Shown here one piece after another: positions 618 to 49,609 of a stretch of DNA of 64,000 bases. A program made the translations under genes and the position numbers. How positions within the stretch are numbered: position 1 is the first letter of the stretch; each line of letters begins with the position of its first letter. Below the pieces are notes generated by a model. That model was given only the letters and a program-made list of their open reading frames with translations. It ran no database searches and was not told the DNA's origin. The DNA is from Ileibacterium valens (GTDB lineage: Bacteria > Bacillota_I > Bacilli_A > Erysipelotrichales > Erysipelotrichaceae), in NCBI RefSeq assembly GCF_001945525.1, contig NZ_MPJW01000260.1, positions 1-64,000 of the forward strand, given 5' to 3'.

Positions 618-2549
618 TTAACAGCCCCTTTTATGATTTGTATGGTTATTTGAAGCTGGTTTCCCTGAATTTTTTAAGGAATGATGAGTGGAACGAGGGT
701 TTTTGACTGTTGCTGCACGGCGTTTATTCATCATCTCTTCCATTGCGGCTTTCGAATTCAGAATCACTGGAATAACGATGGGGTTTCTATGCGTCTTCTT
801 ATACAGGAAAGGTTCAAGTGAAGAGCGAATGCAGTTTTTGATTTCGGCAAAAGTCGTCTTTTCTTTCATTTTTTCTGCCAGCGCATTGCCAACCACATAT
901 TCAGCCTCACGAATGAGCGGCTGAGAATCTTTCAGGAAGACAAAACCTCGTGAGACAATGACCGGACGGCAGAGGATCTTATTTTCCTTGGAATCAATCG
1001 CAATGACTACGGCCACTAAACCATTGTCTGCAAGGATGCGGCGGTCTTTAAGGACTGCGGTTGAAAGTCCGGAAATATCGTTTCCATCGACATAAATGTC
1101 ATCACCCTGAAAGCGCCAGTCAGATGGAATAATCTGATGATCTCTCATCAAAAGAATGTCGCCATTCGAACAGATAAAGATGTTTTCTTCAGGAATTCCA
1201 GTTTCGATTGCTGTCTGGCGATGCTGCATCAGCATTTTATGTTCACCATGAATTGGCATCATGAATTTTGGTTTCAGAAGCTGAATCATCAGTTTCTGTT
1301 CAGACTTTGAAGCATGGCCGGTTGTATGCAGGTTATTTAAAACAGACTTGTTCAGAACGGTAGCTCCTGAACGAAACAGCTTGTCGACGATTCGGTTAAC
1401 GGAAACATCATTTCCCGGGATTGGATTGCTCGAGAAAACAACAGTGTCTGTTGGCTTCAGATGAATATAGCGATGGGTTCCATTGACGATGCGGCTTAAC
1501 GCGGCTAAGGGTTCTCCCTGAGATCCTGTACAGAGGATGCAGACTTTATCATCTGGAGTGTATTTTAACTGATCAGGAGACAGCAGTTCATCATTGGAAA
1601 TGTGAATAACGCCCATGTTTCGGGCAATTTCAACAACGTTTTCCATTGAGCGTCCAAAAACGGCTACTTTGCGGCCTGTTTTGCGGGCGGCATCAATAAT
1701 CTGAGCCACTCGATACACATTGGAAGCAAAGGTCGCAACGATAATTCGGTTTTTTGTGCTCTTCATGATCTTCAGAATTTCCCTGGCTACATCCATTTCT
1801 GAAATGGAGAAACCATCCACTCCCGAATTTGTGGAATCCGACATCAATAGATCTGGCTTCATCGTTCCGATAAAAGCCATTTTCTGATAATCGGCATTCT
1901 GTCCCACTGGCGTCAGGTCAAATTTGAAATCTCCGGTGTGAACAGCGGTTCCATTTGGAGTTGTAATAAACACTCCAAGTGAATCTGGGATGGAGTGAAT
2001 GGTATTGAAGAAGCCAATCGTGAAATTTTTCATTTTGACAGAAGAGTCTTCATTGATTTCTATAATTGGAACTTTGGGCGCATCCTTGTGTTCACTGAGT
2101 TTCTTTTCGATCAGAGCCTTTGCAAATCTTGGTGCATAAATCTCTTCAATTCCAACCTGCTTGATCAGAAATGGGATACCGCCAATATGATCTTCATGGC
2201 CATGAGTGATCACAAGTTTTTTGTGTTTTTTGTTATTTCGAATCAGATGATGGTAATCCGGGATGACGTAATCGACCCCGAGCAGATCATCACCAGGGAA
2301 AAGAACTCCGCAGTCAACGATGACAATTTCGTTGCCATGTTCGAAGCAGTACATGTTTTTTCCAACTTCACCCAGACCGCCAAGGGCATAAATCAGAGTG
2401 TCGTTTTTCTGAACTTTATGAATATCGTTATTGGAATTGCTTTGCAAGGCATCCGATTTTTTGCGGATATCTTTATCTTTATCTTTGTCTTTGTCATTAT
2501 GGCGTCCTCGTAAAGAAGAAGCCGGATTTGTATTCTGTTGATTAGGCAT
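618..2549 (-). CDS. rnjA: Ribonuclease J
   Basis: A 643-residue metallo-beta-lactamase-fold RNase with combined endonuclease and 5'-3' exonuclease activity, central to mRNA decay and rRNA maturation in Bacillota. The zinc motif HGHEDH (His116, His118, Asp120, His121) sits in the usual context after LGGLGEVGKNMY at 56-67. The beta-CASP and C-terminal dimerisation regions follow. It is longer than the usual ~555 residues because of a ~50-residue charged N-terminal extension with a (DK)n run at 19-27 and a basic C-terminal tail. The ATG at 2549 is preceded by AGGA (2557-2560) beside a perfect hairpin. J1 versus J2 cannot be decided; rnjA is chosen as the essential paralogue name. Confidence 0.93.
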   Translation of the reverse strand: MPNQQNTNPASSLRGRHNDKDKDKDKDIRKKSDALQSNSNNDIHKVQKNDTLIYALGGLGEVGKNMYCFEHGNEIVIVDCGVLFPGDDLLGVDYVIPDYHHLIRNNKKHKKLVITHGHEDHIGGIPFLIKQVGIEEIYAPRFAKALIEKKLSEHKDAPKVPIIEINEDSSVKMKNFTIGFFNTIHSIPDSLGVFITTPNGTAVHTGDFKFDLTPVGQNADYQKMAFIGTMKPDLLMSDSTNSGVDGFSISEMDVAREILKIMKSTKNRIIVATFASNVYRVAQIIDAARKTGRKVAVFGRSMENVVEIARNMGVIHISNDELLSPDQLKYTPDDKVCILCTGSQGEPLAALSRIVNGTHRYIHLKPTDTVVFSSNPIPGNDVSVNRIVDKLFRSGATVLNKSVLNNLHTTGHASKSEQKLMIQLLKPKFMMPIHGEHKMLMQHRQTAIETGIPEENIFICSNGDILLMRDHQIIPSDWRFQGDDIYVDGNDISGLSTAVLKDRRILADNGLVAVVIAIDSKENKILCRPVIVSRGFVFLKDSQPLIREAEYVVGNALAEKMKEKTTFAEIKNCIRSSLEPFLYKKTHRNPIVIPVILNSKAAMEEMMNKRRAATVKNPRSTHHSLKNSGKPASNNHTNHKRGC

Positions 2550-2561
2550 TAATAAAATCCT

Positions 2562-2576
2562 GAACCGTATCGGTTC
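2562..2576 (-). promoter_or_regulatory. Hairpin in the rnjA leader next to the ribosome binding site
   Basis: GAACCGATACGGTTC (minus strand) is a perfect 6-bp inverted repeat with a 3-base loop, ending two bases before the AGGA that serves rnjA. It could stabilise the mRNA 5' end, modulate initiation, or act as a protein site. A role in RNase J autoregulation is inference. Confidence 0.4.
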
Positions 2577-2724
2577 TTCCTTTCTGTAACAGCCGTAAGC
2601 AAAAGGGATAGATGCATTCTGATTATGAGAAGTAATAAATCGATGAAAACAGATAGCCGGATTTCTGAATCCAAAATGATTCAGCAGCGCAAATGATTAT
2701 TGAATTCTTTTACCAGCAAACTGG

Positions 2725-2940
2725 GGGAGTAAAGCCAAAGATTCCAGGTGCTGATCCATTGGATGATCAAAATGAGTTCTGTCGTATGCCTGCCAAACTA
2801 ATCTCTTTTGAATCGATAGTTGATCTTCAGAGATCAGGCGGCCTGCAGGTTTTCATTCGTTTACGGCAAAGGGATCCAAAGAAGATCAATGTCAGCTTTG
2901 GGAGCTTTTCTTTTTTGCAAATAAGATTGGTAAGATCAGT
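2725..2940 (-). ncRNA. Candidate structured non-coding RNA upstream of rnjA
   Basis: The 484-base gap between rnjA and def has no convincing gene. On the minus strand a TATAAT box (2944-2949) is followed by a stretch whose ends can pair: AAAGC..CCAAAG (2908-2896) with CTTTGGCTTT (2740-2731). Inside are further nested pairings, GCTGA-ATTG-ATC with GATC-CAAT-TCAGC, CCTGC with GCAGG, and the local hairpin TGATC/GATCA, giving a rod-like fold of about 180 bases. Such a rod resembles 6S RNA in outline only; no conserved 6S core was recognised. No good -35 or terminal U run was found. It could simply be a long rnjA leader. Confidence 0.25.
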
Positions 2941-3033
2941 CAGATTATAAGTGAAAGAAAAGCAATTAAAAGTCATGAGTATTGTAACACAATGACAATG
3001 AGGCCTAATTCGTGGAAGAAAAAAACAGTGGAA

Positions 3034-3591
3034 CTATTCAAGCACCACTGCATTGTCCGGAATCTGATAAGGATTCTTCTGATTAATATGATCGTAGTAA
3101 AGTTTTCCACTCAAATGATCGATTTCATGCTGAAGAACAATCGCTGGATAGCCCTCAGCCTTAATTGTCACTTCCTGGTCCGTTAACAGGTCATATCCGC
3201 GAACCTTGATGCGGTTTGAACGGAATACATAGCCTTCCTTGGTTTCAGGAACCGAAAGACAGCCTTCACCTGTCTGTAAAGCGGCCAGTTCGCGGCTTCT
3301 CGAAATAATTTTCGGATTCGCTAAAGCAAATTCAAAAATATGATCTTCATCGATTGGAACCACAACGGCGATCATCTTTTTGGGAATACCGAGCTGAATT
3401 GCCGCAATACCCACGGCAGGCTGAAGATTCTTTACTTCAGCGATTTGTTCGTCCTGACTTTCAGCAACATACTGATGCATTTTAAAGAGCAATTCGGCAT
3501 CTTCCTTACTTAATGGGATATTCACATCAGCGGAATGCTGGCGAATTCTGGGATCATCGTCATGAATCACAGTTTCCATGTTAATTTCCAT
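3034..3591 (-). CDS. def: Peptide deformylase
   Basis: A 185-residue metalloenzyme removing the formyl group from the initiator methionine of nascent proteins. All three family motifs are present: GIAAIQ at 61-66, EGCLSVP with the metal-binding Cys111, and QHEIDHL with His155, Glu156 and His159. The length and the long segment between motifs I and II fit the Gram-positive type 2 enzymes. The start is placed at ATG 3591, because GGAGG lies seven bases upstream. A longer frame from TTG 3606 would place the initiation codon inside the ribosome binding site. It is transcribed toward rnjA, with a 484-base gap between. Confidence 0.95.
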   Translation of the reverse strand: MEINMETVIHDDDPRIRQHSADVNIPLSKEDAELLFKMHQYVAESQDEQIAEVKNLQPAVGIAAIQLGIPKKMIAVVVPIDEDHIFEFALANPKIISRSRELAALQTGEGCLSVPETKEGYVFRSNRIKVRGYDLLTDQEVTIKAEGYPAIVLQHEIDHLSGKLYYDHINQKNPYQIPDNAVVLE

Positions 3592-3879
3592 AGTATAAGC
3601 CTCCAATATTCATCATTCTATCTTGTCCCAATCACTTTTCAAAGCGTTCAGAGAGTTTGCAGATTCTCAGAAATCTCTTCCTCAAAGAAGCTTATACCGC
3701 TTATGTTAGTATTCGTGCATGGAAATCTTTTAAGAAATAGAATAGAATCAGTTTTTGTATTATTTTACTTTTCTGCTTAGTATTCTGTTTCTATTGACAG
3801 TTTCTGTTGGCAGATTTGCAGTTTTGTTTAAGCGATCCAATGACCGAAACGAAATAATGAAAGAATCCGGAAAGGAAAG

Positions 3880-5208
3880 ATGCCTGTGCAGGAGTATTCA
3901 AGTCCTGGTCCAATGCCAAATGCCCATAAAACCAGGAAAAAGAAGCGCCGCTCTCTGTTTTCGAAAAATAAAAGAAGAAAAGAAAAAAAGCCATTCATGG
4001 AACGGATGTTATCAAAACTGATGATGAAATCCGGAAGTGATCCCTGGATCAATGCAAGTGTTTTTTTACTGATGATCTTTGGAACGATTATGGTCATATC
4101 TACAGATCTGGGTCTTCACATCGGTGAGCCCCGTCAGATCCTGATCAGTATTGGCAAACAGCTGCTCTATATGGGTGCTGGCTATTTAAGTATGGTAGCT
4201 GTTTCCAAATTATTCGATTATTCATTGTTTAAAGTTTTTCAGAAGTTTCTTATCATCGTCTTTTTTGGATTGATGATTTGCGTTCTTATTTTTGGAACCA
4301 CTGTTTATGGATCAAAGGCCTGGCTGACCATTGCCGGAATTATTTCCATTCAACCATCTGAATTTGCTAAACCGCTGATCATCTGGATGAGCGCTCTGGC
4401 TGTATACATGACCTGTTATTATCCAAGACGAAGTGAAAGCTTCTGGGTTATGTTTCATGATCCGAATATGTTTTTTATTGGCTGTGCACTTTTTGTCCTG
4501 CTTCAGCATGATTTAGGAACATTAACGATTATCTTTTTGATCTATGTGGTCTGTACTCTGGTTCCAGCTGAAAAAGGCCCCCGGTTCGAAAAGACAAGAA
4601 AGGTTCAGAAATGGATCAAGGGCATAGGTGCTGTTGCAGTCATCTGTGCGACCGTATTCGTCTTTGTCACTGACATAGCGGAAAATGTCACGAGCCAAAT
4701 TACACCCCTCTATCATGTTTCGACCCGTATTCGAAATATGAAAGATCCATATGCGGATGTCTATAATGAAGGCTATCAGCCAGCCAACTCGCTGTATTCC
4801 ATTGGAGATGCCGGTTTATTTGGTAAGGGAATTGGAAACTCGGCCAGAAAATATGGGTATCTTACCCAGGCGGATTCCGATTATATTCTTGCGGTAACCA
4901 TCGAAGAGACAGGAATTCTTGGTCTTGGGCTCATCTTTGTCTTATATCTGATCCTGATTGGCCGCATGTTCTGGTATGCCCTGATGGCTAAGGATTCTTA
5001 CGATAAGGTTCTGCTGGTTGGAACAGCAGCCTATCTGGGAATTCACTTTATTATCAATGTCGGTGGAGTGGGAGCCCTGATTCCAATGACGGGAGTTCCT
5101 TTATTATTTATTTCAGCAGGAGGAACTAGTATCGTCGCTGCAAGCTTAGCTATTGGTGCTGCACAAAGCCGGATTGCGGATATTCGAAAGCAAAACGGAG
5201 AAATATAG
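3880..5208 (+). CDS. ftsW: FtsW/RodA/SpoVE-family (SEDS) peptidoglycan polymerase
   Basis: A 442-residue polytopic membrane protein of the SEDS family, which polymerises lipid II together with a class B penicillin-binding protein in division or elongation. A strongly basic cytoplasmic N-terminus (about residues 17-45) precedes roughly ten hydrophobic segments. Family marks are GSKAW..QPSEFAK in the middle, GDAGLFGKGIGNS, the ADSDYILAV..EETG signature loop, and a C-terminal NVGG..PMTGVPLLFISAGGTS. These look slightly more FtsW-like than RodA-like, but the paralogue call is uncertain without division-cluster neighbours. AAAGGAAAG precedes the ATG. A strong terminator separates it from coaD. Confidence 0.8.
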   Translation: MPVQEYSSPGPMPNAHKTRKKKRRSLFSKNKRRKEKKPFMERMLSKLMMKSGSDPWINASVFLLMIFGTIMVISTDLGLHIGEPRQILISIGKQLLYMGAGYLSMVAVSKLFDYSLFKVFQKFLIIVFFGLMICVLIFGTTVYGSKAWLTIAGIISIQPSEFAKPLIIWMSALAVYMTCYYPRRSESFWVMFHDPNMFFIGCALFVLLQHDLGTLTIIFLIYVVCTLVPAEKGPRFEKTRKVQKWIKGIGAVAVICATVFVFVTDIAENVTSQITPLYHVSTRIRNMKDPYADVYNEGYQPANSLYSIGDAGLFGKGIGNSARKYGYLTQADSDYILAVTIEETGILGLGLIFVLYLILIGRMFWYALMAKDSYDKVLLVGTAAYLGIHFIINVGGVGALIPMTGVPLLFISAGGTSIVAASLAIGAAQSRIADIRKQNGEI

Positions 5209-18515: not shown

Positions 18516-19262
18516 ATGAGAGATATTATTATTGTCGGCAACTGGAAAATGAATAAGAACAATGCTGAAACAAAAGCATTCTTCGAAGAAGTTGATCCAG
18601 CTGCTAAAACAAGCAAAGGACTGTATGGTGTTGGCGTACCTTTCACTGACCTGAGAACAGCTCTTGATAATGCGGAAAACCTGATCGTTGCCGCTGAAAA
18701 CGTTCATTTTGAAGATTCTGGTGCATTTACTGGTGAAGTTTCTGTACCTATGCTTGAAGAACTGGGCGTAAAATACTGCATTATCGGTCACTCCGAAAGA
18801 CGCTCCATGTTTGGGGATACCGATGAAACAGTGAATAAGAAAGCTAAACGCCTTCTTGAAGCTGGAATCACTCCAATTCTTTGCATTGGTGAAACTGAAG
18901 CTGAATACGATGCTGGTAAAACAAAAGATGTTGTTACAGCTCAGCTGAATGGTTCCTTAAAGGATATTCCTGCTGAAGAATTCGGCAACATCGTTCTTGC
19001 TTATGAACCAATCTGGGCGATTGGAACAGGCAAATCTGCTTCTGTTGAAATCGCAGAAGACTGCTGCAAACTGGTTCGTGATGTAGTCAGAGAAATGGCT
19101 GGTGACGAAGCCGCTGAAAAAGTAAGAATTCAGTACGGCGGTTCTGTTAAACCTGGAAACATCGTTGAATACATGGCTCAGCCAGATATCGATGGTGCTT
19201 TAATTGGTGGAGCATCCCTTAAACCAGATTCTTTCCTGGAAATCATTGAAAAAACAAAATAA
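18516..19262 (+). CDS. tpiA: Triosephosphate isomerase
   Basis: A 248-residue TIM-barrel enzyme interconverting dihydroxyacetone phosphate and glyceraldehyde 3-phosphate. The N-terminal GNWKMNK carries the catalytic Asn and Lys, IIGHSERR carries the electrophilic His, and AYEPIWAIGTGK carries the catalytic Glu and flexible loop 6. YGGSVKPGN and GALIGGASL close the phosphate site. The ribosome binding site AGAAGAGGA lies just upstream, 19 bases after pgk, so the two genes are co-transcribed. Confidence 0.97.
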   Translation: MRDIIIVGNWKMNKNNAETKAFFEEVDPAAKTSKGLYGVGVPFTDLRTALDNAENLIVAAENVHFEDSGAFTGEVSVPMLEELGVKYCIIGHSERRSMFGDTDETVNKKAKRLLEAGITPILCIGETEAEYDAGKTKDVVTAQLNGSLKDIPAEEFGNIVLAYEPIWAIGTGKSASVEIAEDCCKLVRDVVREMAGDEAAEKVRIQYGGSVKPGNIVEYMAQPDIDGALIGGASLKPDSFLEIIEKTK

Positions 19263-25974: not shown

Positions 25975-27078
25975 ATGGCTTTAACCGCAGGTATTGTTGG
26001 ACTTCCAAACGTTGGTAAGTCCACCCTGTTTAATGCGATTACCAAATCGCAAGTTGAGGCGGCAAACTATCCATTTGCCACCATTGCTCCAAATGTCGGA
26101 GTTGTTGAAGTGCCGGACAAAAGAATTGATCGTCTCAGAGAAATTTTTAATCCGAAAAAAACAATCTATACCACCTTTGAATTTACAGACATCGCCGGTC
26201 TGGTAAAAGGTGCTTCCAAAGGCGAAGGGCTGGGAAACCAGTTTCTTTCAAACATTCGGCTGACGGATGCAATCTGTCACGTTGTCCGCTGCTTTGAAGA
26301 TGCAAACATCACTCATGTGGAAAACAGTGTTGACCCGGTTCGTGATGCCGAGATTATCAATCTCGAACTGATTCTGGCTGACCTTTCAACCGTAGAAAAC
26401 CGAATTGGTAAGGTGGCCCGTAAAGCTCAGTCAAGCAAGGATAAGGAGATCAGGCAGGAATACGATTTGCTGATGAAGCTCAAGCCGCATCTTGAATCTG
26501 AAAAGCCGGCTCGTTCATTAGAACTGAATGATGATGAAAAACTGCTGATGAATCAGTACAATTTGTTAACCGCAAAGCCGGTCATCTATGTGGCCAATCT
26601 GGATGAAGAAGGTATTTCTGATCCAGAATCTTCCAGACATTATCAGGCGCTGGCTGCCAAAGCCAAAGAAGAAGGAGCAGAAATCGTTCCAGTCTGTGCC
26701 AAGATTGAAGAAGATCTGGCTTCTCTGGATAAGGAAGAAAAGGATGCCTTCCTCGATGATCTTGGTCTTCCTCATTCGGGACTCGATGCCTTGATTACGA
26801 CCGCCTATCACATTCTTGGATTATCTACCTTCCTGACGGCAGGAGAAGATGAATGCCGCGCCTGGACTTTCCATAATGGAATGAAGGCGCCAGAATGCGC
26901 TGGAGTCATTCACACAGACTTTCAGAGAGGATTTATCCGGGCTGAAGTTTACCGCTTCGAAGACATGGATGAACTGGAAAGCGAACAGGCGATTAAGGAA
27001 GCTGGGAAAATGTGTCTTGAAGGAAAAGATTACGTCGTTCAGGATGGCGATGTGATGCATTTCAGGTTTAACGTATGA
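25975..27078 (+). CDS. ychF: Redox-regulated ATPase YchF (Obg family)
   Basis: A 367-residue P-loop protein of the Obg/HflX class that prefers ATP over GTP and associates with ribosomes. The Walker A is GLPNVGKST near residue 8, followed by the switch FTDIAGLVKGAS and the NLDE motif (VIYVANLDEEG), whose NxxE form explains the altered nucleotide preference. The C-terminus is a TGS domain (THFQRGF-like segment here IHTDFQRGFIRAEVY, then DYVVQDGDVMHFRF). It lies three bases after the DUF951 gene and overlaps the M50 protease gene by four bases. Confidence 0.97.
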   Translation: MALTAGIVGLPNVGKSTLFNAITKSQVEAANYPFATIAPNVGVVEVPDKRIDRLREIFNPKKTIYTTFEFTDIAGLVKGASKGEGLGNQFLSNIRLTDAICHVVRCFEDANITHVENSVDPVRDAEIINLELILADLSTVENRIGKVARKAQSSKDKEIRQEYDLLMKLKPHLESEKPARSLELNDDEKLLMNQYNLLTAKPVIYVANLDEEGISDPESSRHYQALAAKAKEEGAEIVPVCAKIEEDLASLDKEEKDAFLDDLGLPHSGLDALITTAYHILGLSTFLTAGEDECRAWTFHNGMKAPECAGVIHTDFQRGFIRAEVYRFEDMDELESEQAIKEAGKMCLEGKDYVVQDGDVMHFRFNV

Positions 27079-44341: not shown

Positions 44342-47300
44342 TTGAGCGTAAACAACTTTGCCTCAATTCAGGTAAGCCTTGCCTCTCCGGAAACCATTCT
44401 GAAATGGTCTCATGGAGAAGTAACTAAACCTGAAACAATCAACTACCGCTCTCAGAAAGCGGAAAAAGACGGTTTATTCTGTGAAAGAATTTTCGGACCG
44501 ACAAAGGACTGGGAATGCGCCTGCGGAAAATATAAAAAAGTCCGCTTTAAAGGTGTAGTCTGCGACCGATGCGGAGTCGAAATCACAAAATCGAGCGTAC
44601 GCCGTGAGCGCATGGGACACATCTCCCTTGCGGCTCCGGTCGCTCATATCTGGTATCTGCGCGGTATTCCAAGCCGTATGGCCTTACTGCTTGATATCAC
44701 CCCAAAACAGCTTGAAGAAGTTGTTTATTTTGTCAGCTATATCGTCACAGATCCTATGGACACTGACCTGCAGTATAAGCAGGTTCTTTCCGAAAAGGAA
44801 TTCCGTGAAGCTCAGGCAACCTATGGCCCTGGTGCTTTCAAAGCCCAGACCGGTGCTGAAGCTGTTTTAAAACTGCTTCAGGATATCGATCTGGAAAAGG
44901 AATATGACGATGTTCAAAAGGCTCTTGAAAAAGCGACGGGTGAAAAACGAAAAAAGCTGATCAAACGTCTGGATACAATCAATTCATTCCGTCATTCCGA
45001 CAACAAACCTGAATGGATGATTCTGACAAATATTCCAGTTATACCACCTGATCTGCGTCCAATGCTTCAGCTGGATGGCGGACGCTTTGCAACCTCTGAT
45101 TTAAATGACCTTTATCGTCGTGTCATTACCCGTAATAATCGTCTGCGCAAGCTGCTCGATCTGGGAACTCCAAATATCATCGTTCAGAACGAAAAACGTA
45201 TGCTTCAGGAAGCGGTTGATGCTCTGATCGATAATGGTCGCCGTTCCAAACCAATCACGGGTGCTGGTGGACGTGCTCTTAAATCCCTTTCTCATTCTCT
45301 GAAAGGTAAACAGGGACGTTTCCGTCAGAATCTTCTTGGTAAACGTGTTGACTTCTCCGGACGTTCTGTAATCGCAGTAGGACCAGATCTGAAGATGTAC
45401 CAGTGCGGTATTCCGCGCGAAATGGCTATCAATCTGTTTAAGCCATTTGTTATTAACGAAATCGTGAATCAGCATCTGGTAAGCAATCCGAAGAACGCTG
45501 AAAAGATGATTGAACGCCGCGATCCTCGAATCTGGGATATCGTTGAAAAGGTCATCGATGGTTATCCAGTTCTGTTAAACCGTGCGCCTACGCTGCACCG
45601 ATTAGGTATTCAGGCCTTCCTGCCTAAACTGGTAGAAGGAAGAGCCATGCGTCTGCACCCATTGGTATGTACTGCCTTCAACGCAGACTTCGATGGTGAC
45701 CAGATGGCCATTCACGTACCTCTTGGTGAAGAAGCACGTGCGGAAGCACTCGTTATGATGCTTGGTTCTCATAACATTCTTGGACCTAAGGATGGAAAAC
45801 CAATCGTTACTCCAGGTCAGGACATGGTTATGGGTAACTTCTATCTGACGATGGAAGAAACCAAACAGGAACTTCTTGAAGAAGCAGAACGCTACCGCAA
45901 AGTCGGCGAAGAAAAAGAAGCTGCTGCATGGGAACGCTATGCCAATGCAGAAGGTACTGTCTACGCTGATGTGGATGAGGTTATGCTTGCTTACAATACA
46001 AATCAGGTACACCTGCATTCCCGTATTGCTCTGCCTGTATCTGGTCTGAAGAAATCTTCCTTCAAGGAAGAACATGAAAATGATTACCTGATTACTACAC
46101 CAGGAAAAATCATCTTCAACTCGATGTTCCCAGAGGATTTCCCATTTATCAATGAGGTATCTGCAGCGAACTTCGAAGCCACTCCTGATAAATACTTCGC
46201 TGCTCCAGGTGAAGACATCAAGGAAAAAATCGCAGGTCTTGAAATTACCGAAGCCGTTAAGAAAAAAGACCTCGGAAAAGTTATTGCCGAAGTCTTCAAA
46301 CGTTATCCGGTAGACGATACAGCTGAAATTCTTGACCAGATCAAATCTCTTGGATTCAAGTATTCCACTGTAGCTGGTATTACCGTTGCGCTTTCTGATA
46401 TCGAAGTGGCTCCAAACAAGGAAGAACACGTGGCTTACGGCCGTGAAAAGGCTGACCAGCTTAAACGCCTTCAGCAAAAAGGAATGCTAACCATGGAAGA
46501 ATGGGAACGCCACCTGAACAAACTGTGGGCTGATGTCAAGGACGATATCGTTGAAGAGCTGATGAGTAATCTGCCTCGTAAGAACCCAATCAACATGATG
46601 GCGACTTCCGGTGCACGTGGTAATACTTCCAACTTTACCCAGCTGGCTGGAATGCGTGGTCTGATGGCTCGACCTGCTAAAGGTAAATCCCGTGCTGGTG
46701 AATATGTTCCATCCATCATCGAAGTACCGATCTATTCCTGCTTCCGTGAAGGACTCAATGTATCCGAGTTCTTTATTTCTACCCATGGTGTGCGTAAAGG
46801 TCTGACCGATACCGCGCTGAAGACGGCTGAATCTGGATACCTGACTCGTCGTCTGGTTGACGTAGCACAGGATGTCATCATTAAGGAAGACGACTGTGGA
46901 ACAGATAAGGGATTCCTGGTAGAAGACCTGGTAGACCGTAAAACCGATACGATCATTGAACCTCTCTATGATCGTCTGGTTGGACGTTACTCCAAAGAAG
47001 ATGTTTACGATCCGAAGACCAATGAACTGATCATTGAATCGGATAAATATATAACTGAAGATCTGGCTCATAAGATTGTCGATGCCGGCATTACTCAGAT
47101 GCTGATCCGTTCACCATTTACCTGCAAATCCACTAACGGTATCTGCCGTATGTGCTATGGCAAGAACATGGCGACTGGACGTGATGTTGAAGTCGGTGAA
47201 GCTGTTGGTACAATGGCTGCCCAGTCAATCGGTGAACCTGGTACTCAGCTGACCATGCGTACCTTCCATACCGGTGGTGTTGCCGGTGGTGATGGTGGAG

Positions 47301-48256
47301 ACATCACTCAGGGTCTTCCTCGTGTTGAAGAGCTGTTCGAAGCCCGTCATCCAAAAGGTGTTGCCGTCATTGCTCAGATTTCTGGTCAGATTACATCGAT
47401 CGAACGTATCGATGGTACTCTGCGTCAGGAAATTATTGTTACAAACGACACTGAATCTGTTTCCCATAAGATCAATGCCAATCAGACATTACGTCCATGG
47501 GTAACTGTTGGTGCTGAAATTGAAGCCGGTCAGCCAATGACAGAAGGACCACTCGATCCGAAGGAACTTCTTGCCGTTGCCGGTGTTAATGAAGTTCAGA
47601 ACTATATTCTGAAAGAAGTTAAGAAGGTTTATCAGTCTCAGGGTATCGAAATTTCCGATAAACACCTTGAAGTTATGATTCGCCAGATGATGAAGAAAGT
47701 TATCGTAACCGATCCGGGAGATACTGATCTGAATGTTGGAGTTCAGCTTTCCCTGAATAACATTACGAAGATTAACAAGGATGCTTTACTTTCCGGTAAA
47801 ACTCCTGCAACCTTCAAACCGGTTCTGCTTGGTATTTCCAAGTCTTCTGTTGAAACTGATTCCTTCTTATCTGCTGCATCCTTCCAGGAAACCACAAAGG
47901 TTCTTACCGATGCAACAATCAAGGGTAAAGTCGATCACCTGATCGGTCTGAAGGAAAATGTTATCATTGGTAAACTGATTCCTGCTGGAACCGGATGCAA
48001 GGGCGACCGTCCTCAGAACCTGCTGGTTGCTGAAAAAGCAGCTCAGTTAAGGGCAAAACGTCTGGCTCGAGTTGAAGAAGCAAAGAGTGAAGACGAAGAA
48101 TTCGACAAGATTGTTCAGAATTCGATGCCTGTAGTTGAAGAGGCTCCAGAACTTCCAGAACCAGCTGATGATTTTTCCTTAATGGAAAATGATAATATCC
48201 TCAATGACCCACAGGGTTTTGCGGAAGCTCTTTCCCATATGGATGATCTGAAGTAA
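44342..48256 (+). CDS. rpoC: DNA-directed RNA polymerase beta' subunit
   Basis: A 1304-residue core subunit. The N-terminal zinc ribbon is [22 protein letters not shown] (about 60-81), the catalytic magnesium loop is [15 protein letters not shown] (near 450), the trigger-loop region contains [16 protein letters not shown], and a second Cys cluster ends in CRMCYG. The start is TTG 44342 with AGGAGG about ten bases before; no ATG or GTG fits better. A short acidic C-terminal tail follows the last conserved block. A strong terminator ends the operon, and no rpsL or other ribosomal gene follows. Confidence 0.98.
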
Positions 48257-48274: not shown

Positions 48275-48315
48275 AAAGGGCAGAATATCCAGGTCAGGAT
48301 ATTCTGCCCTTTTTT
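48275..48315 (+). terminator. rpoBC terminator
   Basis: AAAGGGCAGAATATCC (48275-48290) pairs perfectly with 48297-48312, followed by T to 48315. Confidence 0.95.
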
Positions 48316-48319
48316 AATT

Positions 48320-48462
48320 GTGTACCGGGCATGGCACGTAGCTTGCTGATGGAAGTCCAGCCACAGGTTTCATCGCCGAGTGTAGAGAAGCGCAAGCGGT
48401 CCAACCGTAAGGAGGGTCGTGAAGGAAGCGAGTATCAAAATTTCGAGCCTATGAACAAAAAC
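48320..48462 (+). mobile_element. Group II intron-like 5' fragment, no reverse transcriptase
   Basis: Directly after the rpoC terminator begins GTGTACCGGGCATGG, close to the GUGYG start of bacterial group II introns. The following ~140 bases read like intron domain I: GAAGTCCAGCC, GCGGTCCAACCGTAAGG, GTCGTGAAGGAAGC, and CGAGCC..ATGAACAAAAA. They are clearly richer in G+C than flanking DNA. No reverse transcriptase ORF and no domain V were found, so only a truncated 5' piece remains. Class C introns insert just after terminators, which fits the location. The identification is from memory of consensus sequences and needs a covariance search. Confidence 0.45.
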
Positions 48463-48495
48463 TAGAATCTGATAAGAATTAGAATCTGATAAGAA
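48463..48495 (+). repeat. Two direct copies of TAGAATCTGATAAGAA
   Basis: TAGAATCTGATAAGAA occurs at 48463-48478 and 48480-48495, with a further partial copy (CTCTGATAA) at 48501-48509. The array sits at the 3' edge of the intron-like fragment. Confidence 0.85.
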
Positions 48496-48532
48496 ATAAA
48501 CTCTGATAATCATTTGAATCTCGACTATTAAT

Positions 48533-48559
48533 GAAAAAAGCAGCGAAAGCTGCTTTTTT
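48533..48559. terminator. Terminator downstream of the AraC pseudogene
   Basis: AGCAGC (48539-48544) pairs with GCTGCT (48549-48554), extended by A/T pairs, with T on both strands. It lies 200 bases after the minus-strand AraC gene; 48560-48758 between them holds no recognised feature. Confidence 0.8.
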
Positions 48560-48758
48560 CATGCTTGATCGAATGTTCAGACTGATCCTCTTCGGTTTGA
48601 AGAAGGCATCATGGATTGGAATCAAAAAACCGGATTTGATGATATTTTTCTGATGATCAGAACGCTTTGGCTTATGATTGTTTTGTAGCTTCTGATGATT
48701 CTGCGGATTTTTCAGTTCTTTGCGATTTTGAGGATCCAGCCTCTGATAATTCAGGATC

Positions 48759-49609
48759 TTAAATTGAATCAGGAGCCTGCAGATGCTGATATTCTTTCTG
48801 GCGGATTTCACGATAATTTGATGGCGACAATCCTTTCTTCTTTCGAAACAGCTTAGAAAAGTAAAGAACATCGTCATATCCAACGGATCGGGCGATATCG
48901 TTGATCGAAAGATCTGTATAGATCAGATAATAACAGGCATTGGTCAGCCGCAGCGGTAAATATACTCTTTAACAGACATATCCATCTTTTTCTTGAAGAT
49001 TCGATGAACGTAGCTGCGGTCTAATGAAAGATGGTCTGCGATCTCCTGAACGCTGATGGATTCTTCAAAATGCTGTCCAACATAGGTCAGGATCAGTTCA
49101 ACATAATCCGCAGCACTCAGATCTTTTGTGTTTTTATTGGCAGGAACTTCCTGTGAAAGCTGATAGACCATATCCCAGGCACAGGAGTTATAAAGAAGGT
49201 CTGAATTATCTGTCATTCTTCCAGTCTGCAGGCGAGAAAAGATCGCTGGGATTCGGCTGGTTTCTGGCAGGTGAACCACCAGATCTTCGAAAATGGTGCT
49301 TCGGCCAATGGTTTCTTCAGCCTTTAATCCTTTTAAGCCGATCCATGAATACTCCCAGGGATCATCCTGATCCGCTTCATAATAAATTCTTTCCTGAGGA
49401 ATCATCAGAAACATATCACCAGCTTTTAAATGCCAGGTTTTATCGCGGCATTTATAGATTCCTTTGCCCGAATGGATGTAATGGAACATATACGAAGTTC
49501 TGACGACAGGCCCATAGCTGTGAGAAGGTTCACATTTCTCATGGCCTGAAGTGTAGACCATCAGGTCAATATTTTTATAAAAGTCATTTGAGAAAATATA
49601 GTTCTGCAT
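48759..49609 (-). pseudogene. AraC/XylS-family transcription regulator, frameshifted
   Basis: The first frame gives 221 residues: a cupin-type sensory N-terminus (FHYIHSGKGIYKCRDKTWHLKAGDMFLMIP) and the first helix-turn-helix (ISVQEIADHLSLDRSYVHRIFKKKM). It breaks at TGA 48944 right after KEYIYR. A second frame continues exactly where the family does, LRLTNACYYL then DIARSVGYDDVLYFSKLFRKKKGLSPSNYR, to TAA at 48759-48761. Adding one base near 48950-48957 would restore a 283-residue protein. It is therefore a recent pseudogene, a phase-switched gene, or a sequencing error. Cupin-containing AraC proteins usually sense sugars. AAGGAAAGGG precedes the ATG. Confidence 0.85.

What the first reader, a model, noticed from the sequence alone, without database searches (positions are those of the whole stretch)
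48320..48495. Group II intron-like 5' fragment directly after the rpoC terminator
GTGTACCGGGCATGG and the following ~140 bases look like domain I of a bacterial group II intron, without reverse transcriptase or domain V. Class C introns are known to insert just past terminators, exactly this site. It may be a dead copy, an ORF-less intron trimmed by deletion, or a conserved 3' RNA of rpoBC. Two 16-base direct repeats lie at its 3' edge.
Basis: partly seen in the sequence, partly recalled or inferred. Interest (0 to 1): 0.6.

Follow-up and report, generated by a model that had tools for sequence, protein, structure and literature searches.

The report
Dead group IIC intron 5' remnant
The 143 bases just past the rpoC stop signal are the broken front end of a common bacterial jumping RNA (a group IIC intron) that typically lands right after such stop signals; it has lost everything needed to splice or move, so it is an ordinary genomic fossil.

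Summary
Window 48320-48462 (+) is the first 143 nt (start of domain I) of a group IIC intron. It is 89% identical, from exact first base to breakpoint, to an intact 2.06-kb IIC intron with a 465-aa reverse transcriptase and domain V in a complete genome of the same family (G102). A covariance model built only from 25 relatives gives 117 bits, E about 1e-37. It sits 7 nt past the stem of the rpoC terminator, and 27 other copies examined also sit just past a terminator hairpin. Everything after nt 143 is gone: no EBS1 loop, reverse transcriptase or domain V/VI. The finding's last 33 bases are not intron; they are a 17-nt tandem repeat. Rfam's own hit (RF02001, 36 bits) runs past the breakpoint and is real only in its first ~60 bases. 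The genome holds one other, also wrecked, copy of this intron on contig C247 and no domain V, so no helper intron was found in the assembly. The fragment is absent after rpoC in 29 relatives, so it is not a conserved rpoBC RNA. Truncated IIC introns after terminators are already described as common. Low interest.

The parts
48275..48312 (+). rpoC intrinsic terminator hairpin, the insertion target; T-rich tail and 5' exon end (TTTTTTAATT) run to 48319
   Evidence: 16 pairs, -26.7 kcal/mol, z -6.6; rpoC ORF 44342-48256
48320..48462 (+). First 143 nt (5' end and proximal domain I) of a group IIC intron, truncated at its 3' side
   Evidence: 89% identity to the intact intron in G102; 85% to multicopy intron in G003; R1 model 117 bits, E 2.1e-37; Rfam RF02001 from 48401
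48457..48521 (+). Degenerate tandem array, 3 copies, 17-nt period, around TAGAATCTGATAAGAA, at the breakpoint; the first copy overlaps the last 6 intron bases; probably flank or junction sequence
   Evidence: exact 16-mers at 48463 and 48480; no homology to intact introns beyond 48462
48531..48562 (+). Second terminator-like hairpin downstream of the remnant
   Evidence: 14 perfect pairs, -20.5 kcal/mol, z -5.9

Best explanation
A mobile group IIC intron retrotransposed into the DNA just 3' of the rpoC terminator hairpin in this lineage. Later deletion or rearrangement removed everything after intron nt 143 (rest of domain I with EBS1, domains II-VI and the reverse transcriptase). What remains is a non-functional pseudo-intron lying behind a strong terminator, so it is little transcribed and presumably neutral. 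Shown: the identity and exact 5' boundary, the truncation, the target context, the absence in relatives, and a second degraded copy with no intact copy found in the assembly. Inferred: the order of events, the deletion mechanism, low transcription and neutrality.
For: 89% identity from intron base 1 to 144 of an intact homologue. That homologue has a 465-aa ORF matching TIGR04416 at 399.7 bits, whose closest solved relatives include the GsI-IIC RT, plus domain V (RF00029, 41.6 bits). Model R1, built without the window, scores 117 bits. The terminator hairpin lies just upstream in 28 of 28 copies. Most relatives' copies continue past the breakpoint; the exceptions end at contig or locus edges or in sensitivity-limited matches. 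The own genome has only one other copy, on C247, with an internal domain I deletion, an in-frame TGA, a truncated RT and no domain V. None of 29 family relatives has the fragment after rpoC.
Against: The fragment starts GTGTA, not the GUGYG consensus; the G at position 5 is invariant in the 25 relatives aligned. Among loci in hand only the two copies of this genome have A there. This suggests decay or a local subfamily, not a different element. No same-genus genome was found, so the empty site could not be shown. The assembly has 291 contigs, and an unassembled intact copy is possible.
Confidence: 0.96

Rival explanations
1. An ORF-less or split (trans-splicing) intron whose remaining domains lie elsewhere in the genome and are supplied in trans.
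For: Functional tripartite group II introns have been isolated in a genetic screen (PMC3410883, title and abstract). The degraded C247 copy shows the family once lived here.
Against: No domain V (RF00029) at E<=0.001 in the own genome. A full-length intron query finds only C247 (nt 181-1388) and this fragment. The breakpoint lies within domain I, upstream of the presumed EBS1 loop. The invariant G5 is mutated.
Confidence: 0.01
2. A conserved structured RNA in the 3' region of rpoBC.
For: Position directly after rpoC; a second terminator-like hairpin downstream would bound a short RNA.
Against: Absent after rpoC in 29 family relatives. Homologues lie after many unrelated terminators. No sigma-70-like promoter found. 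The fragment alone folds no better than shuffles (z 0.23).
Confidence: 0.01
3. The remnant, once inserted, was locally co-opted, for example as a spacer or back-up terminator module insulating the downstream genes.
For: Two hairpins now follow rpoC, the second from 48531.
Against: The second hairpin is not intron-derived. No conservation data within the genus. The downstream AraC-type gene points the other way and is itself frameshifted.
Confidence: 0.02

Closest known systems
Group IIC (class C) introns with class C reverse transcriptase; terminator insertion reviewed in PMC4424553 and PMC8919778
   Same: 5' sequence, domain I core, insertion immediately after intrinsic terminators
   Different: Only the first 143 nt survive; no EBS1 loop, RT or domains V/VI; G5 to A
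Intact intron G102:C1 about 498.8-500.9 kb (L180 about 2010-4072, -)
   Same: 89% identity over the shared 144 nt
   Different: Intact: 465-aa RT and domain V
Rfam RF02001 group-II-D1D4-3
   Same: Window hit at 36 bits, over the cut-off
   Different: Intact relatives score 89-113 bits; only the first ~60 of the window's aligned bases are homologous

Membership tests
Group IIC intron (as a derived remnant) | Homology to the IIC ribozyme 5' end / domain I | tested here: met
   89% identity to an intact intron; independent covariance model 117 bits
Group IIC intron (as a derived remnant) | Insertion just 3' of an intrinsic terminator hairpin | tested here: met
   Stem ends 48312, intron starts 48320; 28 of 28 copies alike
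Group IIC intron (functional) | 5' end GUGYG | tested here: not met
   GTGTA; G5 invariant in 25 relatives; consensus stated in PMC4028801
Group IIC intron (functional) | Domain V | tested here: not met
   No RF00029 hit in window or own genome
Group IIC intron (functional) | Class C RT/maturase ORF | tested here: not met
   None at this locus; own genome has only a broken one on C247
Group IIC intron (functional) | EBS1-IBS1 pairing with the 5' exon | tested here: inconclusive
   The loop that by alignment should hold EBS1 lies after the breakpoint, so it is missing; its assignment rests on my own knowledge
Conserved rpoBC 3' RNA | Presence after rpoC in relatives | tested here: not met
   0 of 29 family relatives

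The most novel reading that the evidence does not exclude
The 5' remnant is retained and used, for instance as half of a trans-splicing intron or as a small RNA bounded by the two hairpins.
Probability: 0.01. Interest if true: 0.5.

Novelty: new member of a known kind. Interest (0 to 1): 0.07.

Why it matters
It is a tidy fossil of group IIC retrotransposition after a housekeeping-gene terminator, and a caution: the Rfam hit (36 bits) extends about 95 nt past the true breakpoint. It changes nothing about how these elements are understood; the cited literature already says most bacterial copies are truncated (PMC4424553, PMC4028801).

Tried and rejected
The RpoC scan of named genomes returned Erysipelotrichaceae and wider Firmicutes at 45-75% identity, too distant to show an empty site. 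The rest of the Rfam RF02001 alignment after 48462 was rejected as forced global alignment over AT-rich repeat. Weak Rfam matches STnc150, IS128 and others are all below the curated cut-off. A 14.6-bit R1 match at window 18736-18776 was rejected: 41 nt spread over the whole 147-position model, and no intron-like sequence there. The two source papers on terminator insertion and on intron fragments are not held. A microhomology origin of the breakpoint (CTGATA occurs just after nt 143 in the intact intron and in the flanking repeats) is suggestive only.

Full report
Observation. rpoC ends at 48256. A perfect 16-pair terminator hairpin occupies 48275-48312, and GTGTACCGGGC begins at 48320. Rfam at curated thresholds has a single match in the whole 64-kb window, group-II-D1D4-3 (RF02001) at 48401-48557, 36 bits. 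The alignment shows good matching only in its first ~60 positions.

Identity. A search of 98 related genomes found three copies in G003 with 85-86% identity, all ending near query position 153 (window about 48462). Fetching them showed that the G003 copies continue as intron beyond that point; one runs to a reverse-transcriptase start, and the other two stop at identical contig ends, as expected for a multicopy element. A 316-genome search of the order found G102, a one-contig genome of G003's genus, with an 89% match. That copy is intact: it begins GTGTGCCGGGC directly after a terminator, encodes a 465-aa RT/maturase (TIGR04416, 399.7 bits) closest to solved IIC-type RTs, and ends with a domain V (RF00029). 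The window matches it from its first base to base 144, i.e. window 48320-48462, and not beyond.

Independent test. A covariance model built from 25 relatives' first ~147 nt, without any window sequence, finds the window fragment at 117.2 bits, E 2.1e-37. In the whole own genome it finds only that place and C247.

Own-genome state. C247 carries the only other copy: 5' end GTGTACAGGGCAAGG after its own terminator, a deletion of about 100 nt inside domain I, an in-frame TGA in the RT, and loss of the RT C-terminus and domain V. No domain V was found anywhere in the genome. Both own copies share A at position 5, where 25 relatives have G, so the mutation may predate the second insertion, or may be coincident decay. 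The other RT gene of this genome (L003) is a different type.

Target site. All 28 copies whose upstream flank I folded, including this one, sit 1-10 nt past a terminator hairpin. This is the described habit of IIC introns (PMC4424553, PMC8919778).

Not a conserved RNA. The 3' flank of rpoC in 29 family relatives was read (up to 420 nt each, less where a contig ends) and never contains this sequence. The fragment alone does not fold better than shuffles.

3' edge. After 48462 comes a degenerate 17-nt tandem array (48457-48521) and a second hairpin (48531-48562), neither related to the intron except for the six bases of overlap. The breakpoint could have arisen by deletion between the intron and this flank; this is inference.

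Conclusion. An ordinary, 3'-truncated, dead group IIC intron copy. Such truncation is the usual fate of bacterial group II introns (PMC4424553, PMC4028801).

Noticed in passing
window 48750-49609 (-): AraC-family regulator (AraC_binding plus first HTH) is frameshifted near 48953: the second helix-turn-helix continues in another frame. Pseudogene or sequencing error.
   Followed up: partly
L003:1294-2376 (own contig C222): A second, 360-aa reverse transcriptase, only 65 bits to RVT_1, best PADLOC matches 'RT' and an RT-Cas1 model; next to a 342-aa ORF without Pfam match. Type unclear; possibly a CRISPR- or defence-associated RT.
   Followed up: partly
L034 1308-about 2650 (own contig C247): Second degraded group IIC intron copy, also with GTGTA start, an internal domain I deletion and a broken RT.
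   Followed up: yes
G039:C20:23582-24391 and 26069-26527: In relative G039 the C-terminal part of rpoC matches twice, about 1.7 kb apart: a partial duplication.
   Followed up: no
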